From positions 1-64,000 of the forward strand of contig JANRJM010000009.1 in the NCBI GenBank assembly GCA_033763975.1: a stretch of DNA of 64,000 nucleotides, written 5' to 3'. Below, piece after piece: positions 3,294 through 33,038 of this stretch (within the stretch, counting starts at the first letter, position 1; each line of letters begins with the position of its first letter). The stretch comes from Planctomycetota bacterium. GTDB taxonomy: Bacteria > Planctomycetota > Phycisphaerae > Phycisphaerales > UBA1924. Under the pieces are notes generated by a model, which saw only the letters and a program-made list of their open reading frames with translations, searched no databases and was not told the origin of the DNA. A program made the position numbers and the translations under genes.

Positions 3294-3672
3294 GCCGCTC
3301 GATTCTCCGTCGGGGCACGCGGGCACAGCGCGGCCGCTCCGACCGGCTGACCATACCCGTGGTGTCGCGTCCTTCCCATCCGCTGCGCGCAAGATCAGGC
3401 GCGTTGGGCAACTCTTCGCCCGCCCCTCACGCCGTCATTGCGAATCGTTCAGGGAATGGACGGTCGTTCGGAGAGTTCGCGCAACACAGCCCGTAACTTC
3501 CCGTGGCACAACCGACAGATTCTGGCCCGGCACGACCACCGCGCGGCACCACGAGCGACAGAGATCGCACGCCGCGCAGGCTCGCGTGGCCACAGACCCG
3601 CGCTGTGGCGGTCACTCTCTCACTCACGCACCCGTTCAGCAACTCACCGGCTCAAGCGCGGGGCTCGCGCAT
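3294..3672. other. Intergenic region, 379 bp
   Basis: Lies between the prepilin-like gene and the 3' end of the dockerin protein, both on the minus strand. The only structure I see is a 7-bp hairpin (GCCACAG/CTGTGGC, arms 3589-3595 and 3603-3609) downstream of the dockerin gene. It could act as a terminator but has no T run. The short open frames here have no ribosome binding site and no plausible protein. Confidence 0.5.
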
Positions 3673-4884: not shown

Positions 4885-4939
4885 GTCTCTCTCTCCTCAG
4901 CGTGTGGGCCTTTCCAGGGGCCCGGAACAGAAACAATCG

Positions 4940-5953: not shown

Positions 5954-6006
5954 GCCCCGCTCTTTGCAGTGTGTGAAGAATCCGTAAAGCACCACAGGAC
6001 CTCCAC

Positions 6007-7041: not shown

Positions 7042-7225
7042 CCTCGATTCCCGCCGCTGCCTCGGGACCTCAACGGGCATCTTCGCGCTGTCTTTATAGT
7101 TTCCCGCACGGCCGACGACAATACTTAGGCCCCCACGAGAGAGAGGGGGGTCGCGGCCTGCCGCGACGCACCGTCGACGGTCAGCGTCTGCCCGCGCGGT
7201 CGCATTCATTCCGGAGGAGAGAGAG

Positions 7226-8176
7226 ATGAAGATCGCTGCTGGTCTGTTCGTCGCGTGCGTGGCCCTTCCGGCCGTCGCCGGCACCGTCACCGGTTCCGGC
7301 TCGCTCCCCATGTACGGCTCGAACTACGGCGTGACCACCTGGCGCATCGCCGGCGACGCCGGCTCCGCCTCCACCGCCTTCGGCGCCGAGGGCATGACCT
7401 TCTTCAACGGCACCCTCTACGTCTCGCACGACCACGACGCCAACCGCGCCGCCGGCAACCTCGTCTCCTACACCCCCGGCGCCACGGGCAACCTCTCCGC
7501 CGCCACCACCACCCTCATGGGCACCGGCCCCGCCGGCCTCTGGGGCCCCGAGGGCATCACCGTCAACAACTCCGGCTCCGGCTTCGGCTCCTGGGCCGCC
7601 GGCAGCGTCCGCATCACCGGCATCGAGACCCGCGGCACTGATTCCTTCGGCGTCTTCGACACCGGCACCCCCGGCTCCAACATGTCGCCCACCGCCAACG
7701 CCGTCCCCGCGCTCGACGACATCGCCTGGGCGTCCTCCCTCGACCTCTTCGCCGGCGTCGAAGACGGCTCGGGCGATTCCTCCTTCCTTCGCTTCTTCGA
7801 CAAGAACACCATGGCCGTGCAGTCGTTCAGCGCCCCCGTGATCAACGGCGCCAAGGGCATCGCCGCCGTCAGCGGCTCCTTCGCCGCCGCCGTCACCGGC
7901 GCCTCCGTCGGCACCAGCCAGGCCTTCCTCGTCGTCAGCGAGTTCGACGGGTTCGCGTTCTACGACACCAACGGCAACGCCATCGGCCCCGCCCTCACGT
8001 TCGGCGACTACGCCGCCATCAACGAGCTCGAGTCCGTCGCCGTTGATGAGACCAACAACCTCATCTTCCTCGGCGACGAGGCCGGCCTGTCGATCCACGT
8101 CGTCTCCGTCCCCGCCCCCGGCGTGGGCGCGATCTTCGGCCTGGGCCTCCTGGCCGCCGCTCGCCGCCGCCGCTAA
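7226..8176 (+). CDS. Exported protein with PEP-CTERM-like sorting tail
   Basis: A 316-residue protein with signal peptide MKIAAGLFVACVALPAVAG and a C-terminal tail VPAPGVGAIFGLGLLAAARR. The tail has the proline motif, hydrophobic helix and arginine cluster typical of exosortase-processed PEP-CTERM proteins and relatives (known), so membrane sorting and cleavage are inferred. The middle has propeller-like segments (EGMTFFNGTLYVSHDHD, LESVAVDETNNLIFLGDE). The start follows a strong GGAGGAGAGAGAG ribosome binding site at 7211. A hairpin at 8249 lies downstream. Confidence 0.82.
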   Translation: MKIAAGLFVACVALPAVAGTVTGSGSLPMYGSNYGVTTWRIAGDAGSASTAFGAEGMTFFNGTLYVSHDHDANRAAGNLVSYTPGATGNLSAATTTLMGTGPAGLWGPEGITVNNSGSGFGSWAAGSVRITGIETRGTDSFGVFDTGTPGSNMSPTANAVPALDDIAWASSLDLFAGVEDGSGDSSFLRFFDKNTMAVQSFSAPVINGAKGIAAVSGSFAAAVTGASVGTSQAFLVVSEFDGFAFYDTNGNAIGPALTFGDYAAINELESVAVDETNNLIFLGDEAGLSIHVVSVPAPGVGAIFGLGLLAAARRRR

Positions 8177-8510
8177 GCCCGCCCATCGCGGTGCGCCCGG
8201 GCCTCACCCGCCCGCGCAGCGCGTATCGGGTCATCCTCTCTACGTACAAAGGGCCGGCTCCCGTTCAAGGGGCCGGCCCTTCGTCGTTCAAGGCGTTCCC
8301 CCCGGCGAACGCCGCAAACGCGCTGCTTCGCTTCGGCGGCACGCGCCGATGACGATCCGGATCTTCCCCGCGCCGACGCGGCCGGTCTTGCACCCGGTTT
8401 GCGCGATCCCCCCGCCACAGCGCAAAAACGCCGCCCCGGAAGGCCCCGGTTCCGAAACGACCCCTGACATGCCCAGCATCCGTCGCGCCCGCCCGGTCGA
8501 ATCCCCCGTC
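8177..8510. other. Intergenic region, 334 bp
   Basis: Contains the hairpin at 8249-8281 and otherwise GC-rich sequence without a convincing open frame. The promoter of the SOUL lipoprotein gene should lie in its right half, but I see no clear -35/-10 pair. Confidence 0.4.
8249..8281 (+). terminator. Hairpin, probable terminator of the sorting-tail gene
   Basis: Perfect 10-bp stem: AAGGGCCGGC at 8249-8258 pairs with GCCGGCCCTT at 8272-8281, across a 13-nt loop. It lies 72 bp after the stop at 8176. The downstream tract (CGTCGTTC) is only weakly T-rich, so its efficiency is uncertain. Confidence 0.5.
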
Positions 8511-9299
8511 ATGCACACGCAGTCCATTGCCGCCCTCGTTCTGGCCGCTCTCGCGCTCGGCGCCGCCGCGTGCTCCTCGTCGCGGCCCGCACGTCAGGCC
8601 TCGCTCGCCTCGTCGGCCGATGCCGCCGCCAGCACCGATACGTCCGCCGGGCCGTTGCCGGCCCAGCCGCTCGCGCCCGGGCAGATCGTCCGCGTCGGGG
8701 GCGACATGAACACCCGCATCACCGAGCGCGACGGCGAGTTCTTCGTCGGCCCGCTCTCCATCGACACCCCGCTCCCCGAGGGCTACCCCGATCCCACGCC
8801 CCCGGGCGCGATGGACATCAAGACCTACCCCGCCGTCCGGCGCGCCGAGTTCCGCGGCACGAGCACGCCCGAGTCCGGCATGGACCGCGCCTTCTGGCCG
8901 CTCTTCAACCACATCAAGTCGCGCGACATCGCGATGACCTCGCCCGTCGAGATGGACTACAACGACGTCCAGGACGCCGACTCCGCCAAGTCGCGCGATT
9001 GGACCATGTCGTTCCTCTACCGCTACCAGGACCAGGGGCCCACCGGCGAGGACGGCGCCGTCGTCGTCCGTGACGCCCCGCCCGTCACCGTCCTCGCCAT
9101 GGGCGTCAAGGGCGACTACGGCATGGAAAAGGCCCGCCCCGCCATGGAACAGATCGAGGCCTGGCTCGCGGCCAACCCGCAGTGGCGCGCCGCCGGAAAC
9201 TGGCGCAGCCTCTACTACAACGGCCCCAAGCTCATGTGGTGGAACAAGTGGGGCGAGATCCAGATCCCCGTCGAGCGGGTCAGCGCCGCCGCGCGGTAG
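8511..9299 (+). CDS. SOUL-type heme-binding family lipoprotein
   Basis: A 262-residue protein. The start at 8511 gives a lipoprotein signal (MHTQSIAALVLAALALGAAAC) with Cys21 as the lipidation site, so a membrane-anchored periplasmic location is inferred. After a Ser/Ala-rich linker, the segments IKTYPAVRRAEFRGTST, IAMTSPVEMDYNDVQ and YNGPKLMWWNKWGEIQIPV match the SOUL/HBP family fold. That family binds heme or other hydrophobic ligands in known members. An in-frame ATG at 8469 is possible but would put an odd extension before the signal. No ribosome binding site is obvious. No heme enzyme lies next to it. Confidence 0.82.
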   Translation: MHTQSIAALVLAALALGAAACSSSRPARQASLASSADAAASTDTSAGPLPAQPLAPGQIVRVGGDMNTRITERDGEFFVGPLSIDTPLPEGYPDPTPPGAMDIKTYPAVRRAEFRGTSTPESGMDRAFWPLFNHIKSRDIAMTSPVEMDYNDVQDADSAKSRDWTMSFLYRYQDQGPTGEDGAVVVRDAPPVTVLAMGVKGDYGMEKARPAMEQIEAWLAANPQWRAAGNWRSLYYNGPKLMWWNKWGEIQIPVERVSAAAR

Positions 9300-9431
9300 C
9301 CCCCTCGTCCCGTAACACCGCGCGCCCCGCGTCTCCCCGGGCTCTCCGCGGCAATCCGCGCCGTCCGCGCGCATGTTGTGCTTCCCTCCGGCACCACCCG
9401 CACGCTAGCATGTCCGCGAGGAGAGATGCTG

Positions 9432-11159
9432 ATGCGCCGTGTGCTGTCGTCCGTGCTGTGTGTGCTGCTGGGGTCCGCCTTCGCCAACGCGCAGGTGACC
9501 AACGTCTTCACCTATCAGGGCCAGCTCACCGAGGGCGGCCAGGCGCCCTCGGGCGCCTTTGACCTGCGCTTCCGACTCTTCGATCAACCCACCGACGGCA
9601 CGCCCATCGGCGGCATCCTCTGCGTCGACAATCTCCAGGTCGTCGATGGCCGCTTCACCGTCGAACTCAACTTCGGATCTGTCTTCAACGGTGCTTCGCG
9701 CTTTCTGCAGGTCGAGGTTCGACCCGACACCGGCGCGGCGTGCGACATCACGTCCGGCTTCACGGTGCTCACGCCCCGCCAGCGCCTCACCGCGACGCCC
9801 CACGCGTCGTATGCGCTCACCGCCGCCACCGCCGCCACGGCGTCTAACGCCTCGCTCTTCAACAACCAACTTCCGACGTTCTACACCAACGCCGCGAACC
9901 TCTCGGCCGGAACGCTCCCCGACGCACGGCTCAGTTCCAACATCTCGACGCTCTCGGGCGCGCAGACCTTCAGCGGCGTCAAGACGTTCAGCACTGCCCC
10001 CGCCTTCACCAGCGCCGGTTCGCCCTTCAGCGTCGCCAGTTCCTCCCGCGTCACGAACCTGAACGCCGACCTGCTCGACGGCCTGAACAGCACCGCCTTC
10101 GCCGGCGCCACTCACTCGCACGACGCCTCGGCGATCGTCAGCGGCTTGCTCGCCGACGCGCGCATCCCCGCCGGCATTCCCCGGACCGCCATCACCAACG
10201 TCTTCACCGATACGCAGGTCATCAACGTGCCCTCCCAGACGCCGCTCACGCTCATCGGCTCCAACTCCGGCGGCACGTGGGTCAACCTCCAGAACACCGG
10301 CGGCGGGCGCACCTGGAATCTCATCGCCACAGGCACCTCCAACAGCGAAGGCGCCGGCAAACTCCTCATCCGCGATCAGTCCGCGCTCGCCGTCCGCATG
10401 GCTCTGGACTCCGCCGGCCGCGTCGGCATCGGTACCACCGCCCCCTCCTCGCTCGTCGAACTCGCCCAGGCCGACGCCATGCTCCGCGTCCGCAACACGA
10501 ACGACCCCGGCGGCGGGTTCATTCAAGACACCTTCTCGACCCTCCAACTCGGCATGTACAACCCAACCGCGACCGGCTGGGGCGCTGTGCCCGCCAACAG
10601 CCAACGCTCCATGTTCGGCATCCAGAACACCGGTCGCGTCGGCACGCTCGTCAACTCGGGGGGCTCGCCCATCTGGCGCAACACGATCGACGATGGCAAC
10701 GGGAACGCCGTGTTCTCGGGCACCATCGCGGCGGCGAACACGCCCCGCATCAAGCACGTTTCGGGTTCCGCGTTCCTGGGCGTCATCAGCAATGACTCGC
10801 GGACGCTGATTGAGAACATTACCGTCACGGTCCCCGCCGCCGGCTTCCTGCACATCCACTGCCATGCGGTCCTCTACGTGTACACCACCACACCCACGGC
10901 TTCCACGGTCATCCTGGAACTCAAAGAGACCACCGGACCGGAGGTGCTGGTCAAGGAATCGCCGCTCCGCCTCAGCCCGCCCCTTTCCGGGCCCGACATG
11001 TCCATGGAGTCGTCGCAGGTCATCAACCACGTCATCCCCGTCGACGCGGGCACACGTTCATACAAGCTCCGCGTGAGGCACACCGGCCTCGGCGGCGGCG
11101 GCGGCGGCACGCTTCAAGACGCCGACATCACCATCACGTACTACCCCAGCAGCCTCTAG
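9432..11159 (+). CDS. Secreted tail-fibre/adhesin-like repetitive protein
   Basis: A 575-residue exported protein. ATG 9432 has GGAGAG six bases upstream and starts a signal peptide (MRRVLSSVLCVLLGSAFANA). The first domain (VFTYQGQLTEGGQAPSGAFD ... ATPHASYALTAA) recurs in the 23150 gene. The centre has repeats of the DLLDGLNSTAF and VGIGTTAPSSLVELAQ types, which are common in phage tail-fibre and large surface proteins. A beta-rich C-terminal domain follows, with a GGGGGG stretch. Trimeric surface fibre is an inference. It is followed by the convergent lexA gene. Confidence 0.75.
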   Translation: MRRVLSSVLCVLLGSAFANAQVTNVFTYQGQLTEGGQAPSGAFDLRFRLFDQPTDGTPIGGILCVDNLQVVDGRFTVELNFGSVFNGASRFLQVEVRPDTGAACDITSGFTVLTPRQRLTATPHASYALTAATAATASNASLFNNQLPTFYTNAANLSAGTLPDARLSSNISTLSGAQTFSGVKTFSTAPAFTSAGSPFSVASSSRVTNLNADLLDGLNSTAFAGATHSHDASAIVSGLLADARIPAGIPRTAITNVFTDTQVINVPSQTPLTLIGSNSGGTWVNLQNTGGGRTWNLIATGTSNSEGAGKLLIRDQSALAVRMALDSAGRVGIGTTAPSSLVELAQADAMLRVRNTNDPGGGFIQDTFSTLQLGMYNPTATGWGAVPANSQRSMFGIQNTGRVGTLVNSGGSPIWRNTIDDGNGNAVFSGTIAAANTPRIKHVSGSAFLGVISNDSRTLIENITVTVPAAGFLHIHCHAVLYVYTTTPTASTVILELKETTGPEVLVKESPLRLSPPLSGPDMSMESSQVINHVIPVDAGTRSYKLRVRHTGLGGGGGGTLQDADITITYYPSSL

Positions 11160-11268
11160 GCCCCGCCGACCAGGCCCGCACGCGCTGCGCCACGGGCACA
11201 ACACGCGGCTACCCAAGGCCGCGAACCCGCCAATCGCCGTCACGTATCGCCGCACCGATGCCCAGCGC

Positions 11269-11292
11269 CCGGCACCTTGTGCCAGGTGCCGG
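11269..11292. terminator. Hairpin between convergent genes
   Basis: 9-bp stem: CCGGCACCT at 11269-11277 pairs with AGGTGCCGG at 11284-11292, loop TGTGCC. It sits between the tail-fibre-like gene (+) and lexA (-), so it could stop both transcripts. There is no clear T run on either side. Confidence 0.4.
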
Positions 11293-11372
11293 ATTCCCCG
11301 TGCCCGGTGCCCGCTTCGAATGAGGCGGGGCCGCTCCAGGCCTCGGGAAGGGCACGCGCCAATCACACCCCG

Positions 11373-11990
11373 CTACCGCCCGTACCGGCGCACCACGCCC
11401 TTGACGATCCCCTGCACCTGACAGTACTTCACCCGGATGGGGTCGAAGTTCGGGTTCGCCGGCTGCAGGCGGATGTAGTCGTCTTCCTTGTAGAAGGTCT
11501 TGAGCGTCGTCGAGCCGTCGGGCAGCAGCGCGACGACCTTGTCGCCGTTGCTCGCCACCTGCGTGCGCTCGATGAGCACGAAGTCGCCGTCGAGGATTCC
11601 CTCGTCGCGCATCGAATCGCCCTCGACCTTCAGCGCGAACGTCGAGTTTTGCGAGCGTGTGCCGCACAGCACGTCGGCGAGGTCGATCTCGTCGGTGTCC
11701 GACACCTTCTCGATCGGGTTGCCCGCGGCGATCCGCCCCACCAGCGGGAACCGCAGCGGGCGGGCCTCGTCGGGCACCGCGATCCCGTCAGCGATCGACA
11801 AAGAGCGCGCCTTGTTCGGCTCGCGGACCAGCGCCCCCTTCTTGATGAGCGCCTCCACGTGCTCGAACACGGTGACCTTGCTGACGCCGATCTCGTCGGC
11901 CAGCTCCTGCATGGTCGGCGAATAGCCCCGGCGCACCCGCCAGTCGCGGATCAACTGCAGAATCTTGAGCTGCTTGGGCGTCAGGTTCAT
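11373..11990 (-). CDS. lexA: LexA repressor, SOS regulator
   Basis: A 205-residue self-cleaving repressor of the DNA damage response. The N-terminal winged helix has TPTMQELADEIGVSKVTVFE-like recognition-helix residues around 24-43. The cleavage bond is Ala89-Gly90 (RIAAGNP), the catalytic Ser is 126 in GDSMRDEG, and the catalytic Lys is 164 in TTLKTF. Length and residues are intact, so it should be functional. The minus-strand promoter at 12510-12538 would give an unusually long leader of about 510 nt. Start ATG 11990 has AGGAGC upstream. Confidence 0.95.
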   Translation of the reverse strand: MNLTPKQLKILQLIRDWRVRRGYSPTMQELADEIGVSKVTVFEHVEALIKKGALVREPNKARSLSIADGIAVPDEARPLRFPLVGRIAAGNPIEKVSDTDEIDLADVLCGTRSQNSTFALKVEGDSMRDEGILDGDFVLIERTQVASNGDKVVALLPDGSTTLKTFYKEDDYIRLQPANPNFDPIRVKYCQVQGIVKGVVRRYGR

Positions 11991-12509
11991 CGCGAACGCT
12001 CCTTTCAGTCGTCACCGGGGCAGGCCCGCACACGCGCCAGTCCGCGGGCACTGTCGCCCGGGCCTGGTGCACGGATCCCGCCCCGTCCGTGCGCACTCCA
12101 GAGATTCCGCCTTCGTCACCACACTCGTCGGCCAGGCCCGACCGCGCCGACGGCACCCGAACCGAGTGTCCCGACGCCGGCCCTCCACGCACCCACCACG
12201 GGATCGCCCCGCCCGCCCGGGCCGCGCTCTCGCACCAATCGCGCACCGCGCGAACCCACACCCCGAACACCCGCCCGCGCGAATCCCGCGCCTGCGTGTA
12301 CTCCTTCACGAAATCCCCGCCCGGTCCGAGGCTCACGACTGGGGCGTGCATCTGAGGCATGGCGCCGTCTCGCTCCGCGCGTTCGCCCGCTCCACAAGCG
12401 CCGCGCGATCCCTTTCCGCGCGGGCCAACTGGCTCCACCCGCGCCTCTCCATCATCGATCCGGATCTTCCTACCCGATCAGTTTTCTGGCAGTCTGTTCG
12501 GATCACGAT
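11991..12509 (-). other. Long leader region upstream of lexA
   Basis: About 519 bp between lexA and the predicted promoter. I see no CTGT-N8-ACAG or GAAC-N4-GTTC operator. A minus-strand frame from ATG 12360 (MPQMHAPVVSLGPGGDF...) uses GC-ending codons in a coding-like way for roughly 60 codons. It then continues into the lexA gene in another frame, stopping at 11788, so it is not called as a gene. Confidence 0.4.
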
Positions 12510-23149: not shown

Positions 23150-24337
23150 TCACTCCGGCGCGCTGGTGATGTAGGTGACGCGCGCGGAGAAGAGCGCGGT
23201 GGAGGCGCCGAGCCAGTCGGAGCATCCGAGCGACAGGTAGTACGAGTAAACAGAGTTGGTGATGAGCACGCTCGAATCGGCGAAGATGATCTGAATGTTC
23301 GCGCTGTTCACGGAGGACGGCGTGGCGACGAGGCCGCTGGAGCCGAACTGGCCGTGCGTGCGCCGGTAGAGCAGGCCGGTGAAGGACGAGGCGCCGTTCT
23401 CGTAGACGAAGAACTCGATGCGGGTGATGCGGCATCCGTCGGGCAGGTTGATGGGGGCGACGAGCGCGGCGCTGCCGATGCCGGCGTCAAGGAAGGTGCC
23501 GCTGGGGCCGACCTCGCGCGTGGGCGAGACGTTGGGGAGGGAGGCGTTGAACGCCGCCCCGGGCACCGAGAGCACGCGGGTCTGCGTGGCGCTGTACGCG
23601 AAGGCGTTGGCGCGGACGGTGCCGCCGACATCGAGCTTGGCGGTCGCGGAAGGCAGCCCGATGGCGACGTCGCCGTTGTTCTGCACGCGGATGCGGTCGC
23701 CGCCGTTGTCGACGACCCAGGTCTGGGTGGCGCCTTCGAAGTAGGTGCGGCAGAGGCGCAGGCCGTCGCCCGTGCTGTAGCCGTAGAACGGCAGGGCGTT
23801 CGCGCCGGCGATGTTGACGTACATGCCGCCGAAGGTGAAGTCCGGGGCGGCGGCGGTGAAGCCGAAGTACTCCGACGAGTTGAGGCGCGCGGAGCGCCCG
23901 AGGAACAGGCGCTGGCGCGACAGATCAACGTGCAGGTTCGTGCCGCCCGACGGGACGAGCCACTCCGTAAGCGCGCGGAGGGCGTACGGCGCGGGCGACA
24001 CCGGCTGGCGGGGCGCGAGCGTGGTGAAGACGCCAGACCCGGCGGGGCGGACGGCGATCTCGGCCCATCGGGCCGGGCCGGTGAACACGCCCGCCCCGGG
24101 ATCGACCTCGAGGGTGAACGTGCCGTCGGGCGCGGGCGTGACCGTCGCCAGCGTTTCGACGCCGACCTGATCGGGGCCGGCCGGGCTGGCGAAGATGCGC
24201 ACGCGGAGTTCGTGCGGCCCGGTCGCCGGCTGGCCGGCGTTTTCCAGGCGGCCCTGGTACGCGAACGGCTGCGCGAGCGCCGCGACGGGACCGACGACAA
24301 CCGCCGCGCACGCGGCCAACAACCGGTGGTTCAACAT
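23150..24337 (-). CDS. Secreted tail-fibre-like protein
   Basis: A 395-residue exported protein. ATG 24337 follows GGAGG seven bases upstream, with signal peptide MLNHRLLAACAAVVVGPVAA. The first domain (FAYQGRLENAGQPATGPHEL, then APRQPVSPAPYALRA) is homologous by eye to the start of the 9432 gene. The middle has NNGDVAIGLPSATAKLDVGG, as in phage tail-fibre or large surface proteins. The C-terminal domain is different. It is convergent with the DegP-like gene, with 44 bp between them. Surface display is an inference. Confidence 0.75.
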   Translation of the reverse strand: MLNHRLLAACAAVVVGPVAALAQPFAYQGRLENAGQPATGPHELRVRIFASPAGPDQVGVETLATVTPAPDGTFTLEVDPGAGVFTGPARWAEIAVRPAGSGVFTTLAPRQPVSPAPYALRALTEWLVPSGGTNLHVDLSRQRLFLGRSARLNSSEYFGFTAAAPDFTFGGMYVNIAGANALPFYGYSTGDGLRLCRTYFEGATQTWVVDNGGDRIRVQNNGDVAIGLPSATAKLDVGGTVRANAFAYSATQTRVLSVPGAAFNASLPNVSPTREVGPSGTFLDAGIGSAALVAPINLPDGCRITRIEFFVYENGASSFTGLLYRRTHGQFGSSGLVATPSSVNSANIQIIFADSSVLITNSVYSYYLSLGCSDWLGASTALFSARVTYITSAPE

Positions 24338-24535
24338 GGCACCCTCCTGCGACCGGGCTTCCACCGTACGGAGTTTCACCGGGTTGTCAAGCCGGACCGG
24401 CGAGAGGCCCGGGAGGTGGGAGCGACCAGCGCGGTCGCGTCCGATAGCGGCGTGCGCCCGCGCAGGCCGCCCACGGGCACGCGATAACGCCGGGCGACGG
24501 TGGGCAGGACCCGGCGCGCATCGAACACTCGAGGT

Positions 24536-25372
24536 ATGCGGCTGAGCGCCTCCCAGGCGATCATCGTGTTCGGCATCGTCGCGGCGATGCCCCCGAGCAC
24601 GGTGCGCGCGGGGGTCGTGTACCTGAACGACGCGTACGCCACGTCGTTCGGTGCGCGCGTCGCGGGCTTCAAGTACCGGGTGTCGAACACCAACTTCGAT
24701 GTGTCGCTGGACAACGGCGGCGGCACGAGCGTCCTGGGCGCATACCTGACCGGGGCCATCGGCAACACGTCGCAGTTGTCGGGCGTCACGTACGAACTGG
24801 TGGTCGCGCACGAGGTCGGCGAGGGATTCACGTTCTCGATGACGCCGGCGGGCGCGGCCTCGCCCGCACGCGTGCTGTTCTGGGGCCCGGGGCAACCGCC
24901 CGCGGGAGCCACGAGCGCGGTCACGCTGGGCGGCGTGCACACCGGGGGTGCGTTCAACACACTGCTGATCGAGGCCCGGGCCACGCTGAACGGGTCCACG
25001 ATGGCCTTCTCGCAGTTGTCGTTCACGAGCCCGACGCTGACGATCGCCGGGGGCGGCTTCGAGACGGGGTCGGTCACGCCGGCGACGCGCGGGCCGTCGG
25101 ATACGGTGGACGGGATGTGGACGCAGCGCATATCGGCGGATGCGGATCTGTCGGCGCACGACTGGACCTTCAGCGCTCGCGTGACGGCGACCCGAAACCC
25201 GGGAGGCGGCGGCGACGAGGCGCTGCGGTTCACCGTCGGCGCGGGCACGGGCACGGTGGTGCCGTCGGCCGGTGGCGAAACAATGCTGGCGACGGCGGGG
25301 CTGCTGCTGGCGATGTGGCGGCGTCGCGGCGCGCCGACGAACGGGGCAAGAACGCGGAACGCCGAGCCGTGA
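24536..25372 (+). CDS. Exported protein with weak C-terminal sorting-like helix
   Basis: A 278-residue protein. A signal segment (SQAIIVFGIVAAMPPSTVRA) is followed by a beta-rich body (VVYLNDAYATSFGARVAGFK). Near the C-terminus VPSAGGETMLATAGLLLAMW precedes an Arg cluster, which resembles a PEP-CTERM tail but with about 10 extra residues after it. ATG 24536 has GAGG immediately before it, so the spacing is short; an in-frame start at 24500 is an alternative. I recognise no domain. Confidence 0.65.
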   Translation: MRLSASQAIIVFGIVAAMPPSTVRAGVVYLNDAYATSFGARVAGFKYRVSNTNFDVSLDNGGGTSVLGAYLTGAIGNTSQLSGVTYELVVAHEVGEGFTFSMTPAGAASPARVLFWGPGQPPAGATSAVTLGGVHTGGAFNTLLIEARATLNGSTMAFSQLSFTSPTLTIAGGGFETGSVTPATRGPSDTVDGMWTQRISADADLSAHDWTFSARVTATRNPGGGGDEALRFTVGAGTGTVVPSAGGETMLATAGLLLAMWRRRGAPTNGARTRNAEP

Positions 25373-25513
25373 GCGGGCGAGGAAGTGCGGGGGTGAGCAA
25401 GGGCGCGGGGTCGGCGGTGCCGCGCATGAGCTCCGCGCCGCGAGTTCAGGGGCACGGGGTGTGCGTACGTTGAAGCCGCCTGCCCGCGCGGGGCGCGAGG
25501 TACACTCGCCCTC

Positions 25514-26350
25514 GTGAACATCGACCGGATGCGCAGGTCGCGGGCGGGCGGACGCCGGATTCCCGGCGTCATGGCGCTTGCGAAGTTGGTTGCGATCAGC
25601 GCCTTCGTCGCGCTTGTCGCGCTCGGCGAAGCAGGCGCCCTCGTCGGGTGTGCCGCGCCGTCGCGCAAGGGTGATGCCTCGCTGCGCGTCGGCCCGGTGA
25701 GCCGCGCATACCTGGAGAGCGAGGTGCGCCTGCGCCCGGTGGTGATCGGCGGGCTGCGGGCGCCCGACGACGCGCTGCGTGCCGCCGCGTCGCGCCTGGG
25801 CAAGCACGTCGGGCGCGAGGTGGTGGTCGAGGACGCGTGCGAGGTGGAACTGGAGCCGGGCGAGTACGACGTGGTGCAGCGGGTGATCGAGCGGTGCGAG
25901 GCCGTCCGCGCGATGACGCCGACCACGGTGCTCGTTGTGCCCGCGAGCGGCGCGTGGGTGACGGGCTATGCGACAAGCCGCGGCGAGGGCGAGCCGGGGC
26001 GCGGCCGGCGCGCCGTGGTCGTGGTGATGCCCGAGGGGATCGCGCGGCGCTCGGGGTTCTTCGTGCGCCCGAGCAAGCTGTGGGAATGGACGCTCGTGCA
26101 CGAGATGGGGCACGTGCTGGGCGTGCCGGCGAGTTCGTCGCACGCGTGGGACGTCGAGGGGCTCGGGGTGCACTGCACGAACCCGGGGTGCGTGATGTAC
26201 ACCGGGTTCGACTGGCGCGTGCTGTGGACGGGGATCGTCCGCGGCTGGCCGCTGGAGTTTTGTGAGGACTGCGCGCGAGAACTGCGAGAGGCGGGGGAAG
26301 CGGGTGGGGCGGAGCGGGTGAACCGCGAGCGCAATCTCGGGGTGGGGTGA
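25514..26350 (+). CDS. Archaemetzincin-like zinc metallopeptidase, lipoprotein
   Basis: A protein of up to 278 residues (GTG 25514; ATG 25529 or 25571 are alternatives). A hydrophobic segment leads to the lipobox ALVGC (Cys46). The catalytic helix is LVHEMGHVLG (His196, His200). It is followed after an insertion by VHCTNPGCVMY and then FCEDCAREL, giving the four-cysteine structural zinc site (Cys221, 226, 250, 253) diagnostic of archaemetzincins. In the family His-Cys follows HExxHxxG directly; here about 14 residues intervene, so the third metal ligand is probably His220. The substrate is unknown. Confidence 0.8.
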   Translation: MNIDRMRRSRAGGRRIPGVMALAKLVAISAFVALVALGEAGALVGCAAPSRKGDASLRVGPVSRAYLESEVRLRPVVIGGLRAPDDALRAAASRLGKHVGREVVVEDACEVELEPGEYDVVQRVIERCEAVRAMTPTTVLVVPASGAWVTGYATSRGEGEPGRGRRAVVVVMPEGIARRSGFFVRPSKLWEWTLVHEMGHVLGVPASSSHAWDVEGLGVHCTNPGCVMYTGFDWRVLWTGIVRGWPLEFCEDCARELREAGEAGGAERVNRERNLGVG

Positions 26351-26400
26351 GGGCAGCGGCGCAGCAGGGTGATGCGGCCTGGGCGGAATCTGGACACAAT

Positions 26401-26430
26401 GACGCCCGGACGCGTTGGCATCCGGGCGTC
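26401..26430. terminator. Hairpin between convergent genes
   Basis: Perfect 10-bp stem: GACGCCCGGA (26401-26410) and TCCGGGCGTC (26421-26430). A second small stem, GGTCTC/GAGACC at 26443-26456, follows. It lies between the metallopeptidase (+) and the Gly-rich mini-gene (-) and probably ends both transcripts. Confidence 0.6.
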
Positions 26431-26477
26431 GTGGTACTAGATGGTCTCACGAGACCGTGGTTGTGCCCACGAACGAG

Positions 26478-26633
26478 TTACTTCTTGGGAGGATTGTTGT
26501 CACGCCCCGGACCGGACGGGTTGGTGGTCGTGCTCGGCTTGCCGCCGGGTCCCTTGCCGCCGCCACCACCGCCGCCGCCACCACCGCCTTTGTTGCCGCC
26601 GCCCTGATTCCCGCCGCTTCCAGTACTCGACAT
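26478..26633 (-). CDS. Gly-rich 51-residue protein
   Basis: MSSTGSGGNQGGGNKGG is followed by an uninterrupted glycine run, then KGPGGKPSTTTNPSGPGRDN and a basic end. ATG 26633 has GGAG eight bases upstream on the minus strand. There is no signal peptide or hydrophobic segment and it is predicted to be disordered. The glycine run is encoded by a GGN repeat that could change length by slippage. I know no function. The ribosome binding site and the hairpin at its 3' side argue that it is a real gene. Confidence 0.55.
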   Translation of the reverse strand: MSSTGSGGNQGGGNKGGGGGGGGGGGKGPGGKPSTTTNPSGPGRDNNPPKK

Positions 26634-26905
26634 GTCGGAAACTCCCGCGGCCCGGCGGCGAGGCACACCCCCGAGAGTGCCGGACCATGCCTTCGGATGC
26701 GCGGGAGGCATCGGTGTTCCGACAATACCATGTCACCAACTCCCTGTCCGGAAGGCACTTGCGAAGTACGGCGTGAGGTTGGAGGCCGCACGGAGCGACC
26801 GAACACACGGTTCCATACCGCTGCGTTTACGAACGAACAACGTGCATGCGACGCCCGTGGCGCGGTGTGGAGCCGTGCCAACCCGCGCGGGCGAGACGTG
26901 CGGAT

Positions 26906-26934
26906 GCAGAGGGAACCCCTTCGGTTCCCTCTGC
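26906..26934. repeat. Perfect 12-bp inverted repeat
   Basis: GCAGAGGGAACC (26906-26917) and GGTTCCCTCTGC (26923-26934) with a 5-nt loop CCTTC. No T run follows on either strand, so it is not a simple terminator. Confidence 0.75.
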
Positions 26935-27057
26935 AACTCCCTCCGGCGAAGGCGGGGTCGGGGGTGCGGCGGGGGAGAGTGTGGAGAGACGGAGCGGGAG
27001 GGAGGCGTTGACTGCCCAAGAGGAGGCGGGGTCGGTGGTGCGGGGTGTACGGACGGG

Positions 27058-27275
27058 GGTGCCACCTGCCGCCTGCTCGTTCGGTCGTTGGTGCCACCCG
27101 CCCCGGAGCCGAGTTGCGGGCGGAGGAGATCGCTGATTTGGGGGCGAGAGGCGGGGGAATAGGGTGTACGGAGGTTTGGGCCACGGGATGCTCCGACATC
27201 GGCGGACCGATGTCGGTGGCACGGGCTTGATCAATGTTGGTGCCACCTGCCGTACGTACGTTGGTGCCACCTGCC
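27058..27275 (+). repeat. Repeated GGTGCCACCTGCC motif upstream of the helicase gene
   Basis: Copies at 27058-27070, 27090-27102 (one mismatch), 27239-27251 and 27263-27275. The last two are 24 bp apart and share flanking TTG before and TAC two bases after the motif. An inverted GGTGGCAC lies at 27215-27222. The array ends 41 bp before the helicase start and may be an operator array. Confidence 0.65.
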
Positions 27276-27316
27276 TTACACTGGTGCGGCATGCGCTACC
27301 AGTTGCGGAGAAAAGA

Positions 27317-29857
27317 ATGGACTTGTCGAAACTCAAACTCGACCTTGGCTCAAAGAAGCGTGAAACTGATCCGATCCGCATATTCGGCGGGCTCACGCAG
27401 CGCGGACAGGTAGAGACGCTCTACGGCCCCCAGCAGGAGGCGCTGAACGTCTGGCACCAGAAACACCGAGCCAAGTCCGATGTCCTGTTCTCCATGAACA
27501 CGGGCGGCGGCAAGACCCTCGTGGGCCTCCTCGCCGCGCAATCGCTGGTGAACGAGACAAAGGGCAAGGTGTTGTACGTTTGCCCCACCAATCAACTCGT
27601 GCAGCAGACGGCGGCGCAGGCTGAAGACTGCGGAATCACCGTGGCGACATACGGGTCCCAGACTTGGACCAACAGAGATAGATATGACTCTGCCGAGTGC
27701 TGCTGCGTCACCAACTACCACGCCGCTTTCCGCGGTGGGAGCCCATTCCTTGAAGACACGATCCGTGCCGTCCTCTTCGATGATGCCCACGTAGCGCCCG
27801 CGACGATCCGCTCGTGTTTTACCATTGAAGTAAACCGCAATCACGGAGCGTGGGGTCCGCTCATGGGCATCTTCCGCGCCCACTTCGACCATTCCCCGTT
27901 TTCCACGCGGTTCTCCCGCTTCACCGGAGGCGACCAATACGAAAGCGGAGTGTTGTTCGTGCCAGCGTGGTTTGTCTGGGAGCATCGCGCAGCGATCCAG
28001 AAGGCGCTCGCCGAGAATGGAGTGGACGCACAAGATGCCGGAACGCGCTTCGCCTACCGGCATCTGCGAGACCACTTGACCTCGTGCGCGTTCTTCCTCT
28101 CCCAGCGTGGAATCGAGATCACACCGCCCGTCATCCCCACGCATTCGCTCTCCTACTTCGGGCAGAACGTCCGGCGGTTGTACCTGACGGCCACGCTCCC
28201 ATCCCGATACGAGTGCATCCGAACTTTCGGCGTGGATCGCGCGGATATCGTTTCCCCAACAGGCAAGATCGGCGCTGCTCAGCGATTGTTCGCGTTCCCG
28301 CAAGGTGACTTGGATGAGAACGCCTACGACCAAACAGAGACGATGATTGAGCCGCACAAAGCCTGCATCATCGTCCCGTCAAAGCGTGCAGCGGAGCGGT
28401 GGGAGGGCATCGGGACCGTCTACGACAGCAAGTCAGGCCACGCCGGTATCAAAGAGTTCGCAGACGCAACAGATACTCGCAAGATGATCCTCGCGGGCAT
28501 CTTCGACGGCATCGACCTCCCCGGTAAGGCGTGCAAGGTGCTGGTTCTGGACGGCATCCCGCGCGGGGCCTGCCTACACGATCGGTTCGTAGAGGACCAG
28601 TTGGACTCGAAAAAGTTCCGGCTCTCGCAGACGGCGGGTCGGTTGACGCAGGCGATCGGGCGGATATTCCGCAGCAACACCGACCACGGCGTGGTCGTGC
28701 TGGCAGACAAAGCGTTGCAGAGTTGGCTGCGCCAACCAGAGCACATGGCGTACCTCCCTGAGTTGCTTCAGCAGCAGTTGTTGCTGGGCGCGGCGATTCG
28801 CAAGTCGCTCGAAGAGAGTGGCGAGAAGGAGGAGGCGTATCCCGACCTTATGCTGAAGGTCATCCAAGGTGAGAAGGATTGGGACGACTTCTACAACGCC
28901 AAACTCGCCGAGATCGCTACGGAGAAGCGACCGAAGGAGCCTGCATGGGGCGACGGCGCGGCGAGGAAGGAGTACGACGCTTGGACTCATATGTGGGAGG
29001 GCCGCCACCGCGCGGCCGCTGACGCCCTGAACGGACTCGGCAACGAACTGACCGACAAGGATCGCGGCTTGGCGGCGTGGCACCTCCACTGGTGCGGTGT
29101 TGCTCATCTTCAGGAGGGAGACACAGCCACAGCAGCGCTCGCCTTCCAGCAGGCCGCGAACCTGAAGGCGATGCTGGGCCGTCCCGCGACGGCCGGACCC
29201 GCGGTTGGTGCGGCAAGTGTCCCACCCGCGGTATCACCGCAGGCGAAGCGTTCTGTCGTGGCGGCGAAGGGCGCACTCGAAACGGCAGCGAAGTCGGTCC
29301 TGGACCGCTTGCGGGGTGACGGAGGCAAGAACGCGGAGGAGCACGAACAAGCCCTCTGCGACTTGGGCTCGCTGCTCGGGCTCGAATCCAGCAGGCCGGA
29401 GAAGAAGGCGGACAAGAAGGGGCCGGATGTGGCTTGGCTCTGTCCAGAATCGAAGGATGCGCTGGGGCTGGAGGCGAAGACCCAGAAGACGAAGCCCGTG
29501 GTTTACAAGAAGACACGCGATATCGGCCAAGCCCTCGATAGCCGCGAGTGGTTGAAGCAGAACCACCCTCACCTGAAGGATCACATATGGATGGTGGGCG
29601 ACCTCGGAGACGTGGTGATGCAAGCGAACCCACCTCCCGACCTACGGGTGGTACCGCTGGAGTCGATGATGGACTTGGCGCAGCGGCTCATCAACGTGGG
29701 ACGGCGGATCGTCGTGCGCCCCGCAGGGTCGTCTTTGGAGTCCGCAACCCAAGAGGCGTTCACCTACTACGGGTTGCTCTGGCCGCAAGTCGCGGAGTCG
29801 TTGGAGTACCGCTTCGCTATCGACCTCCAAGACAACGCGGTATCGGACGATGAATGA
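27317..29857 (+). CDS. Superfamily 2 helicase with possible C-terminal PD-(D/E)XK nuclease
   Basis: An 846-residue protein. ATG 27317 has GGAG six bases upstream. Helicase motifs are Walker A NTGGGKT (61-67), Walker B DDAH (155-158, a variant of DEAH), TATL (291-294) and motif VI TQAIGRIFR (444-452). After a helical region around 500-620 comes a lysine-rich linker. Then KGPDVAWLCPESKDALGLEA and Lys721 follow, giving a D-x(14)-E-x-K arrangement (Asp704, Glu719, Lys721) that resembles the PD-(D/E)XK nuclease core. The gene stands alone, without methylase or partner. Codon use is less GC-biased than in its neighbours. An anti-phage or nucleic-acid-processing role is inferred, not shown. Confidence 0.75.
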   Translation: MDLSKLKLDLGSKKRETDPIRIFGGLTQRGQVETLYGPQQEALNVWHQKHRAKSDVLFSMNTGGGKTLVGLLAAQSLVNETKGKVLYVCPTNQLVQQTAAQAEDCGITVATYGSQTWTNRDRYDSAECCCVTNYHAAFRGGSPFLEDTIRAVLFDDAHVAPATIRSCFTIEVNRNHGAWGPLMGIFRAHFDHSPFSTRFSRFTGGDQYESGVLFVPAWFVWEHRAAIQKALAENGVDAQDAGTRFAYRHLRDHLTSCAFFLSQRGIEITPPVIPTHSLSYFGQNVRRLYLTATLPSRYECIRTFGVDRADIVSPTGKIGAAQRLFAFPQGDLDENAYDQTETMIEPHKACIIVPSKRAAERWEGIGTVYDSKSGHAGIKEFADATDTRKMILAGIFDGIDLPGKACKVLVLDGIPRGACLHDRFVEDQLDSKKFRLSQTAGRLTQAIGRIFRSNTDHGVVVLADKALQSWLRQPEHMAYLPELLQQQLLLGAAIRKSLEESGEKEEAYPDLMLKVIQGEKDWDDFYNAKLAEIATEKRPKEPAWGDGAARKEYDAWTHMWEGRHRAAADALNGLGNELTDKDRGLAAWHLHWCGVAHLQEGDTATAALAFQQAANLKAMLGRPATAGPAVGAASVPPAVSPQAKRSVVAAKGALETAAKSVLDRLRGDGGKNAEEHEQALCDLGSLLGLESSRPEKKADKKGPDVAWLCPESKDALGLEAKTQKTKPVVYKKTRDIGQALDSREWLKQNHPHLKDHIWMVGDLGDVVMQANPPPDLRVVPLESMMDLAQRLINVGRRIVVRPAGSSLESATQEAFTYYGLLWPQVAESLEYRFAIDLQDNAVSDDE

Positions 29858-29931
29858 TCGCGTGCTTTGGCTTTGTAGCCGTGGTGTAGCCGTGACGCGG
29901 GCGTCCGATTCGAGCCTCCGAAGCCACCAAT

Positions 29932-29960
29932 AAAAAAGCCTCTGGGATGCTCCCAGAGGC
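29932..29960 (-). terminator. Intrinsic terminator
   Basis: Read on the minus strand: GCCTCTGGGA (29951-29960), loop GCA, TCCCAGAGGC (29938-29947), then six T (29932-29937). It lies just after the tRNA-Lys remnant and is oriented as that gene's terminator. On the plus strand the same stem lies 80 bp after the helicase. Confidence 0.85.
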
Positions 29961-29969
29961 GATTTCAAG

Positions 29970-30016
29970 TGCCCCCCGAAGGACTCGAACCTTCGACCCG
30001 CTGATGAAGAGTCAGC
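29970..30016 (-). pseudogene. 3' half of a tRNA-Lys(CTT) gene, 5' half missing
   Basis: The minus strand carries an anticodon arm GCTGA-CTCTTCA-TCAGC (30000-30016, anticodon CTT), a variable loop, a T arm GAAGG-TTCGAGT-CCTTC (29978-29994), the 3' acceptor strand GGGGGGC (29971-29977) and discriminator A. Upstream there is no CCCCCC acceptor strand and no normal D arm; instead the groEL 3' region begins. Base 37 is C instead of a purine. It is probably a nonfunctional remnant or an integration scar. Confidence 0.7.
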
Positions 30017-30039
30017 AGTCACTTTCGCGACTGCTGACT
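30010..30039 (-). repeat. 10-bp inverted repeat between groEL and the tRNA remnant
   Basis: AGTCAGCAGT (30010-30019) and ACTGCTGACT (30030-30039) with a 10-nt loop. The left arm overlaps the anticodon stem-loop of the tRNA-Lys remnant. It lies 10 bp past the groEL stop and may also serve as its 3' hairpin. Confidence 0.7.
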
Positions 30040-30049
30040 GAGGATTCAA

Positions 30050-31684
<1,635 letters not shown>

Positions 31685-31694
31685 GGGGGTCTCC

Positions 31695-31766
31695 AAATGG
31701 TCAAATGGTCAAATGGTCAAATGGTCAAATGGGCAAATGGGCAAATGGGCAAATGGGCAAATGGGC
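31695..31766. repeat. Nine tandem octamers next to the groEL ribosome binding site
   Basis: On the plus strand, four copies of AAATGGTC (31695-31726) are followed by five of AAATGGGC (31727-31766), with no interruptions. The array begins directly upstream of the groEL GGAG, so it lies in the groEL leader or promoter. The unit length of 8 and the perfect repeats make slippage likely. Confidence 0.95.
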
Positions 31767-31783
31767 ACTTAGGAAGAACGAAA

Positions 31784-32041
31784 TCAGGTGCGGGCGGAGA
31801 GATCGCGGCGGGTGTCCGCGTGCGCGAGGCCGATGCGGACCCAGGCGACGCGTTCTGCGTCGATGATGTAGACGCTCTGGCCGTCGGTGACCTTCACAAG
31901 GTGGTCGGGCTCGTCGGGGATGAGCATGGCGGTGTGGACGTGGAGTAGCGACTCGTGCGAGGGCATGGACGTGAACGCGAAGACGCAGTCGCGTTCGCCG
32001 TTGAGTTCGCGGAGTGCTGTGCGGAGTTGGTCCGGGGTCAT
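31784..32041 (-). CDS. Small conserved-looking protein between groES and groEL
   Basis: 85 residues, beginning MTPDQLRTALRELNGERDC and continuing SLLHVHTAMLIPDEPDHLVK then DGQSVYIIDAERVAWVRI. It has mixed alpha/beta character with no signal peptide or membrane segment, probably cytosolic. The strand pattern (H-VH-AMLIP, VKVTDG, VYIID, VAWVRI) suggests a small beta-rich fold. The ribosome binding site is weak. It lies 97 bp after groES and 99 bp before groEL on the same strand, so co-transcription is likely. I do not recognise the family. Confidence 0.65.
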   Translation of the reverse strand: MTPDQLRTALRELNGERDCVFAFTSMPSHESLLHVHTAMLIPDEPDHLVKVTDGQSVYIIDAERVAWVRIGLAHADTRRDLSART

Positions 32042-32138
32042 GGGTGGGGGAAGGCATCGGGCGCTGGGCATCGGGCACGAGGGGACAGAACGAAGGACTG
32101 ACGCCGGTGGCTCACGCCTCATCCCGAGTGCCCTGCAC

Positions 32139-32450
32139 TCAGTCGATGACCGCGAGGATGTCTTCCTCGGACATGATGAGGAGTTCGTCGCCGTCGAGCT
32201 TGACCTCGGTGCCGGCGTAGGACGAGAAGATGACCTTGTCGCCCTTCTTGACGGTGAGCGGGATGCGTTCGCCGGTGTCGGTGTTGATGGAGCCGGTGCC
32301 GACGGCCTCGATGACGCCGGTCTTGGGGCGGTCCTTGGACGATTCCGGCAGGAAGATGCCCGATTCGGTCTTGGACTGGGCCTCGTCCCGACGCACGAGG
32401 ATCTTGTCGCCCAGCGGGCGGATGCCCGTCGCTTTCGCCGCCTTCGCCAT
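32139..32450 (-). CDS. groES: Co-chaperonin GroES (Hsp10)
   Basis: A 103-residue heptameric lid for GroEL. ATG 32450 has a perfect GGAGGT six bases upstream. The core IRPLGDKILVRRDEAQ, the mobile loop KTESGIFLPESSKD and the end SEEDILAVID are all present. No CIRCE inverted repeat (TTAGCACTC-N9-GAGTGCTAA) occurs in the 78 bp upstream, so HrcA control is not supported here. The hairpin at 32493 belongs to the preceding gene or the leader. Confidence 0.97.
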   Translation of the reverse strand: MAKAAKATGIRPLGDKILVRRDEAQSKTESGIFLPESSKDRPKTGVIEAVGTGSINTDTGERIPLTVKKGDKVIFSSYAGTEVKLDGDELLIMSEEDILAVID

Positions 32451-32492
32451 AACAACCTCCGATATCACACTGCGTTGCGAAACCTGAACAGA

Positions 32493-32516
32493 CGCCCGGC
32501 GCACGCGCGTCGGGCG
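32493..32516 (-). terminator. GC-rich hairpin between the receiver-like gene and groES
   Basis: CGCCCGGCGC (32493-32502) and GCGTCGGGCG (32507-32516) pair over 10 bp with one G-T, loop of 4. It lies 12 bp after the stop at 32529 and 42 bp before groES. There is no strong T run; it could be a terminator or an attenuator of read-through. Confidence 0.45.
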
Positions 32517-32528
32517 GAAGAGAGACGA

Positions 32529-33038
32529 TCAGACCGGCCACTTGCCGCGGTAATGACGCTCGAGGCAGCGGCGGAGCACTTCGAGCATGACGTTGAGGTC
32601 CTGGGCCTCGCGGGGGCGGTCGACGACGGCGAAGGCGCCCATGCGGAGAGCCGCGGCGATGTCGCGGGCTTCGTCGCGCAGCGTGCGCCGGCGCTTGATG
32701 ACGACGACCGGGGGCGGCGAGGCGAGACGGACGAGGATCTCCAGCAGACGCGGGCCGCCTTCCTGGAGTTCCGGGTCGCTGTCGGCGCCGGTGTCGAGCG
32801 GGAGCGCCAGGTCGACGACGGCGACGTGGATCGGCGTGGACTGGATGATGCGGGTGGCCTCGGCGCCGGTGGTCGCCTGGTGCGAGCGGACGCCCATCGG
32901 CTCGAGCAGGCGGGGGAGACGCTCGACCCAGGGGTCGCTCTGCCACCCGCCGCTGGAGAGCAGGAGGTTGAGACGGCAGCCGGCGTGCCCGCCCGTCGCG
33001 GGGTTCTGCGGCTCGTCGGGTTGGCGGGGCGAGGGCAT
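32529..33038 (-). CDS. Response-regulator receiver-like protein
   Basis: A 169-residue protein with one receiver-like domain and no output domain. LNLLLSSGGWQS begins the fold, VAVVDLALP supplies the phospho-acceptor-like Asp, and GAFAVVDRPREAQDLNVMLE ends it. The acidic pair near the N-terminus of typical receivers is not obvious and the switch Lys position reads VVVIKRRRT, so phosphorylation is doubtful. ATG 33038 is used; GTG 33041 is adjacent. It lies upstream of groES on the same strand and is divergent from rmuC. Confidence 0.75.
   Translation of the reverse strand: MPSPRQPDEPQNPATGGHAGCRLNLLLSSGGWQSDPWVERLPRLLEPMGVRSHQATTGAEATRIIQSTPIHVAVVDLALPLDTGADSDPELQEGGPRLLEILVRLASPPPVVVIKRRRTLRDEARDIAAALRMGAFAVVDRPREAQDLNVMLEVLRRCLERHYRGKWPV

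What the first reader, a model, noticed from the sequence alone, without database searches (positions are those of the whole stretch)
27317..29857. Stand-alone helicase with a possible C-terminal PD-(D/E)XK nuclease
The 846-residue protein has clear SF2 helicase motifs (NTGGGKT, DDAH, TATL, QAIGRIFR). Beyond a linker it has Asp704...Glu719-x-Lys721 in a D-x(14)-ExK layout typical of restriction-like nucleases. It lies alone in an accessory-looking stretch with codon use unlike its neighbours, between a terminator and a tRNA remnant. Single-gene helicase-nucleases are a recurrent form of anti-phage defence, so this could be an undescribed one. The fusion is seen; the function is inferred.
Basis: partly seen in the sequence, partly recalled or inferred. 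Interest (0 to 1): 0.75.

Follow-up and report, generated by a model that had tools for sequence, protein, structure and literature searches.

The report
Hna-family anti-phage helicase-nuclease in a Planctomycete
The gene encodes what is most likely a bacterial virus-defence enzyme of a kind already described and structurally solved in another bacterium (Hna), probably acquired here by horizontal transfer; it is an ordinary though quite divergent member of that family.

Summary
Window 27317-29857 (+) encodes an intact 846-residue SF2 helicase with a C-terminal PD-(D/E)XK nuclease. It matches PADLOC's PDC-S28 over its whole length (698 bits), as does the characterised anti-phage protein Hna of Sinorhizobium meliloti (1020 bits). 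Its predicted structure has Hna (9YHN) as best solved match by far (Z 39.7; next non-Hna entry 18.0). The C-terminal domain folded alone matches Hna's nuclease (Z 18.0), then BspD6I and FokI. All four mutagenised Hna nuclease residues are present. The gene is patchily distributed (no match in 6 other genomes of its genus, two of them only 71-76% complete), foreign in codon use, and lies beside a tRNA-Lys(CTT) 3'-half scar. An 85% identical copy sits at an unrelated site in another genus. Most likely it works as Hna does: an idling ssDNA exonuclease released during infection; this step is inferred. One real difference: the dimer-loop residues that restrain S. meliloti Hna are not kept here, nor in most of the 33 relatives aligned, so brake and trigger may differ.

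The parts
27317..29857 (+). Hna-family (PDC-S28) SF2 helicase / PD-(D/E)XK nuclease gene, 846 aa
27500..27517 (+). helicase motif I TGGGKT, residues 62-67 (K66)
   Evidence: motif-I Lys kept in 33 of 33
27779..27790 (+). helicase motif II DDAH, residues 155-158
28649..28672 (+). helicase motif VI QAIGRIFR, residues 445-452
29237..29854 (+). C-terminal PD-(D/E)XK nuclease domain, residues 641-846
29423..29428 (+). P703-D704, equivalent to Hna P712-D713
29471..29479 (+). E719-x-K721, equivalent to Hna E727-x-K729
29970..30016 (-). 3' half of a tRNA-Lys(CTT) gene: scar, probably an integration (att) site
29938..29960 (-). terminator-like hairpin duplicated with the tRNA-Lys 3' flank

Best explanation
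The gene is a horizontally acquired single-gene anti-phage system of the Hna family. Working model, after S. meliloti Hna: the protein waits in the cell as an ATP-bound, nuclease-inhibited enzyme; infection (for Hna, a phage ssDNA-binding protein) releases the nuclease; the C-terminal PD-(D/E)XK domain then digests single-stranded DNA from its 3' end, phage replication fails and the infected cell is sacrificed. Shown here: family membership by sequence and predicted fold, an intact nuclease active site, helicase motifs, a substitution pattern of a constrained protein, signs of mobility. Inferred from the family: phage defence, exonuclease polarity, ATP restraint, trigger. Not transferable as published: the particular dimer-loop contacts of S. 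meliloti Hna.
For: Full-length match to PDC-S28 (698 and 495 bits); S. meliloti Hna matches the same two models at 400 and 1020 bits (PDLC04987, PDLC04986); 33 of 33 aligned members match both at E<=1e-10; the DinG-type helicase of the same genome shows no PDC-S28 match at E<=0.001. phmmer to 10UJ E=3.4e-47. Foldseek: 9YHN rank 1, E=3.4e-42; VIA-align Z 39.7 against 18.0 for the next non-Hna entry. Nuclease domain alone: 9YHN 659-844 at Z 18.0, then BspD6I 11.0 and FokI 10.3. P703/D704/E719/K721 align with the mutagenised P712/D713/E727/K729. Against the 85% identical copy in another genus, over 846 codons, 93, 50 and 390 differences fall at codon positions 1, 2 and 3, as expected for a working protein. 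Mobility: patchy presence, GC3, different neighbours in L005, tRNA scar, and one congener (G005) in which groEL and the counterpart of the window's 23150-24337 gene lie 2.3 kb apart without hna, against 5.7 kb in the window.
Against: Only 22-24% identity to S. meliloti Hna, in a separate well-supported branch. T30, D31 and P34 of the Hna dimer loop are G, Q and T here, and R36 is Y36. The full-length superposition by Foldseek is loose (TM 0.64, rmsd 14.1 over 853 columns; model pTM 0.65), so domain arrangement is unsettled. No activity was or could be measured. No defence gene was recognised among the nine neighbouring readings scanned with PADLOC; the matches there (RmuC, FtsH, trypsin-like protease) are to housekeeping-type proteins as I read them.
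Confidence: 0.92

Rival explanations
1. It is a variant branch of the Hna family with the same nuclease output but a different brake and a different phage trigger, because the dimerisation loop that restrains S. meliloti Hna is not kept. (This refines the best explanation and does not exclude it.)
For: T30/D31/P34 identical to S. meliloti Hna in only 4, 7 and 9 of 33 sequences (S. meliloti Hna itself counted), while Q39, P712, D713 and E727 are kept in 33 of 33 and K729 in 32 of 33; separate branch in the tree, 9 rows, support 100/99. The paper proposes that the phage SSB competes for this same interface.
Against: Loops diverge freely while an interface persists; no dimer was modelled; the two branches share the whole architecture; the 33 sequences are an uneven sample.
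Confidence: 0.35
2. It is a DNA-repair helicase-exonuclease of the DinG/XPD (ExoDinG) kind, not a defence gene.
For: DinG and XPD are the next structural neighbours.
Against: Hna is far closer (Z 39.7 against 18.0); the genome has its own DinG-type helicase; no match in 6 of 6 congeners, two of them 71-76% complete; homologues on plasmids and IMG/VR contigs; foreign codon use.
Confidence: 0.05
3. It is a stranded, decaying relic of a mobile element without present function.
For: It sits beside a tRNA scar and no integrase was recognised among the ten neighbouring readings scanned with Pfam (one of them a wrong frame).
Against: Open frame and all catalytic residues intact; differences from its close relative concentrated at third codon positions.
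Confidence: 0.05

Closest known systems
Hna of Sinorhizobium meliloti (pSymA, SMa2245; PDB 10UJ, 9YHN, 9YKJ; PMC13381803)
   Same: Length (846 and 845 aa), SF2 helicase domains followed by PD-(D/E)XK nuclease, all four mutagenised nuclease residues, Q39, single gene, best fold match by far.
   Different: 22-24% identity; other branch of the family; dimer-loop T30/D31/P34 and R36 not kept; Planctomycetota host (inferred from the title of L005, a genome placed in the same family); no TcmP-like gene recognised among its neighbours.
PADLOC PDC-S28 (models PDLC04986 and PDLC04987)
   Same: Full-length match to both models; the window protein scores higher with PDLC04987, S. meliloti Hna with PDLC04986.
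   Different: A label for a candidate system; the calls here show that it covers Hna itself.
DinG / XPD helicases, including ExoDinG
   Same: Helicase core fold (Z about 15-18); the Hna paper compares Hna with ExoDinG.
   Different: Much weaker match; no C-terminal PD-(D/E)XK domain as far as I recall (not tested); the genome has its own DinG-type gene.
Hachiman, Nhi, Gabija (helicase-nuclease defences)
   Same: Same general idea of helicase and nuclease modules working together (PMC13381803).
   Different: None of them is named among the 25 PADLOC matches shown for the window protein (26 in all).

Membership tests
Hna | Full-length homology to the type protein | tested here: met
   phmmer E=3.4e-47, query residues 11-748; both match PDC-S28 nearly end to end
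Hna | Two SF2 helicase domains plus C-terminal PD-(D/E)XK nuclease in one protein of about 845 aa | tested here: met
Hna | Nuclease residues P712, D713, E727, K729 | tested here: met
   P703, D704, E719, K721
Hna | Dimer-loop residues T30, D31, P34 (loop called highly conserved in PMC13381803) | tested here: not met
   G30, Q31, T34; identical in only 4, 7 and 9 of 33 family members. A feature of the branch around S. meliloti Hna in this sample, so not taken as defining the family.
Hna | ATP-coordinating R36 and Q39 | tested here: inconclusive
   Q39 kept, R36 is Y36; R36 kept in 13 of 33
Hna | Phage resistance by abortive infection | not testable with these tools
   needs a phage assay
Hna | 3'-5' ssDNA exonuclease restrained by ATP, released by phage SSB | not testable with these tools
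   needs purified protein
PDC-S28 (PADLOC) | Match to its profile models over full length | tested here: met
   PDLC04987 3.4e-210 (residues 2-831), PDLC04986 8.4e-149 (3-825)
[quoted passage not shown]
   predicted, pLDDT 86.9; BspD6I, FokI, HindIII, EndoMS among the matches with Z 8 or more
DinG/XPD helicase | DinG/XPD as the closest relatives | tested here: not met
   Hna Z 39.7 against 18.0 for CRISPR-associated DinG; PDC-S28 698 bits against type IV DinG 56 bits; separate DinG-type gene L085 in the genome

The most novel reading that the evidence does not exclude
The branch of the Hna family that holds the window gene keeps the nuclease but not the S. meliloti dimerisation loop, so it is held off and switched on in another way (another interface, another phage product); the published autoinhibition would then be an invention of one clade and not the family's mechanism.
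Probability: 0.3. Interest if true: 0.5.

Novelty: new member of a known kind. Interest (0 to 1): 0.27.

Why it matters
It places an Hna-type gene in Planctomycetota with signs of horizontal transfer, shows that PADLOC's candidate PDC-S28 includes Hna, and shows that in a sample of 33 sequences the dimer loop reported as highly conserved is kept only around S. meliloti Hna while the nuclease site is kept nearly throughout. That gives a direct test of how general the ATP-dimer brake and the SSB trigger are.

Tried and rejected
Whole-model structural comparison with 9YHN aligned model residues 17-620 only, so the nuclease domain was folded alone and searched again. The Rfam scan of 26000-32600 gave one sub-threshold hit (24.7 bits against a gathering score of 65), taken as chance. 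A second att copy upstream of hna was looked for: with up to 2 mismatches the 18-base core has 10 places in the genome, 2 exact (the remnant and the intact tRNA-Lys) and 8 with 2 mismatches, none of these in the window; so no element boundaries can be drawn. Similarity of the flanks of hna between the window and L005 was looked for and only short chance-level matches were found. In one search one of ten readings (23308-24255, minus) was a wrong frame; the gene there is 23150-24337, minus, and it was not scanned with Pfam. The housekeeping-repair and relic readings were considered and put low. In the phage collection 1 of 50,697 records matched, named as a Salmonella strain.

Papers: PMC13381803 abstract and sections 4 and 6-10 read, other passages by term; PMC12445080 and PMC11811056 passages only; Sather et al. 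2023 (10.1016/j.chom.2023.01.010) not read, seen only as cited. Only one paper of the library holds the term PDC-S28, and it does not hold the word Hna in its main text; it says that PDC-S28 is among candidates that another program names otherwise, without giving the name in that passage. So whether the identity PDC-S28 = Hna is in print was not settled. The Hna plus Planctomycet search returned 74 papers, of which 10 were listed; the titles shown are not about phage defence.

Rows dropped: L004 (G042, partial match, E 4.2e-4) was left out of the family; L002 (same contig as L005 by length and position) and L001 and L053 (own copy) were left out of alignment A4 as duplicates. Of 230 plasmid records, 40 were listed and I fetched 7 (H1, H2, H4, H5, H8, H23, H32), so the family sample is not even. 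Of 36 relatives with a groEL match, 29 had loci and went into; two of these (L014, L041) hold only 30 and 42 bases beyond the match and one (L023) 555.

Full report
Observation. Pfam finds ResIII, DEAD and Helicase_C_2 but no nuclease domain, so the C-terminal claim needed a fold.

Family. PADLOC names it PDC-S28 nearly from end to end (PDLC04987 698 bits; PDLC04986 495 bits). phmmer against solved structures finds one sequence, of 10UJ/9YHN/9YKJ, at E=3.4e-47; the paper PMC13381803 (for 10UJ and 9YKJ) and the PDB titles (for 9YHN and 9YKJ) give it as Hna. The S. meliloti 2011 pSymA ORF L012:2953-5490 is 845 aa and, by my reading, carries the letters printed for 10UJ; PMC12445080 lists Hna as SMa2245, together with a TcmP gene SMa2243 (passages). 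This Hna matches PDC-S28 at 1020 bits. All 33 members of alignment A4 (the window, L005, L003, 6 other phylum loci, 7 plasmid loci, 17 IMG/VR loci) match both PDC-S28 models at E<=1e-10. As a control, the DinG-type helicase of the window's own genome matches type IV DinG models and no PDC-S28 model at E<=0.001, and gives a best BLASTP score of 36.6 bits with the window protein (Hna gives 177 bits).

Structure. A model from 19 sequences has pLDDT 79.4, pTM 0.65. Foldseek ranks three Hna chains 1 to 3; the first superposition is loose over its full length (TM 0.64, rmsd 14.1), so domain placement is uncertain. VIA-align gives 9YHN Z 39.7, rmsd 2.8 over 586 residues (model 17-620), the Hna dimer 26.0, then 18.0 for CRISPR-associated DinG. 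[quoted passage not shown] D704 lies just before the strand at 705-709 and E719 in that at 714-720. Best matches: 9YHN 659-844 (Z 18.0), BspD6I nickase and its small subunit (11.0-10.6), FokI (10.3), HindIII (8.2), EndoMS (8.1), Holliday-junction resolvases (up to 6.9).

Active sites. Against the residues mutated in Hna: P712, D713 and E727 identical in 33 of 33 aligned sequences, K729 in 32 of 33 (Tyr in L003), Q39 in 33 of 33, R36 in 13 of 33. The dimer-loop residues T30, D31 and P34 are identical in only 4, 7 and 9 of 33; the window has G30, Q31, T34 and Y36 (counts include S. meliloti Hna itself). The paper calls the loop highly conserved. In my sample P34 is kept in 9 of the 10 sequences nearest to S. 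meliloti Hna and in none of the other 23. The sample is uneven and loop alignment is less certain, but the segment is nearly ungapped up to Gln39.

Tree. With 33 rows and 829 columns the window joins L005 (100/100), then L055 (100/100), then plasmid and IMG/VR proteins (9 rows, 100/99); S. meliloti Hna lies among 19 other rows (100/100). Five rows form a third set, three of them flagged as long-branched; L006 in the window's set and L057 in Hna's are flagged too. The root is only at the midpoint.

Distribution and mobility. Of 61 genomes (own included) 4 had a match; one (G042) is weak and partial, leaving own, G022 and G032. None of the 6 congeners had one; G001 and G003 are only 76% and 71% complete. 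In a phylum sample 7 of 392 had a match at E<=1e-30, own included. Plasmids: 230 records matched at E<=1e-5, 72 with one place over at least 80% of the query (not all need be Hna). IMG/VR: 17 loci from 82 pattern matches. The gene's GC3 is 0.773, window neighbours 0.88-0.96 (0.91-0.96 without groES); in L005 0.612 against 0.93-0.97 for three neighbours. L005 has it beside atpG (named by my reading of the translation), the window beside groEL, with no flank similarity above chance level.

Site. In 29 of 29 relatives' groEL loci compared, DNA similarity to the window ends at window 30048-30098, that is, within or just past the 3' end of groEL (stop codon 30050-30052); 26 of them hold about 1.5 kb beyond. 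In three congeners with about 5 kb beyond groEL held (G004, G005, G006) no hna is there. In G005 the counterpart of the window's gene at 23150-24337 (47% identical) lies on the same contig 2.3 kb beyond groEL, in the same order and direction as in the window, where the distance is 5.7 kb: this looks like a site without the insert, though the genes between differ. In G004 that counterpart is on another contig, so the order is not general, and short matches to this gene's N-terminal part are many. The PDZ protease further upstream is on another contig than the best groEL match in 6 of 6 congeners; contig ends limit what this shows.

Scar. Window 29918-30016 is 87% identical to the 3' half and 3' flank of the intact tRNA-Lys(CTT) on contig C7. 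In congener G002 an intact tRNA-Lys(CTT) and a 49-base copy of its 3' part lie 9.5 kb apart and enclose a tyrosine integrase and a DNA methylase gene: this tRNA end looks like an integration site in the genus. That hna itself came in by this route is inference.

Mechanism. See Best explanation. Shown here: homology, predicted fold, intact active site, constraint, signs of mobility. Exonuclease activity, ATP restraint, SSB triggering and abortive infection are transferred from S. meliloti Hna (PMC13381803; PMC12445080). The dimer loop is where transfer is least safe.

Verdict. Ordinary as a discovery; useful as a divergent member that can test how general the published Hna switch is.

Noticed in passing
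window 27056-27275: Four copies (up to 2 mismatches) of TTGGTGCCACCTGCC lie just upstream of hna (4 in the window, 0.13 expected; with 1 mismatch 3 here and one more in the genome on C18); possibly operator sites.
   Followed up: partly
window 31694-31765: Tandem array of an 8-base unit (CAAATGGT/G) between groEL and groES.
   Followed up: no
L099 about 2668-12261 (G002:C65): Island of about 9.5 kb between an intact tRNA-Lys(CTT) and a duplicate of its 3' part in a congener, with a tyrosine integrase and a DNA methylase; six other ORFs scanned had no Pfam match.
   Followed up: partly
L003 1225-3828 (-): Hna homologue in a same-family genome with Tyr in place of the catalytic Lys (E-D-Y for E-x-K), perhaps nuclease-altered, near an ORF that reads like a tyrosine recombinase (my reading).
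   Followed up: no
L012 5569-7760: Two ORFs beside S. meliloti hna; PMC12445080 lists a TcmP three-Cys-motif partner gene (SMa2243) with hna. Which of the two it is was not tested.
   Followed up: no
window 23150-26350: Of the genes between the PDZ protease and hna, 24500-25372 and 25514-26350 have no Pfam match and the latter has no match in 6 congeners; 23150-24337 (-) has full-length counterparts in three congeners and a widely repeated N-terminal part.
   Followed up: partly
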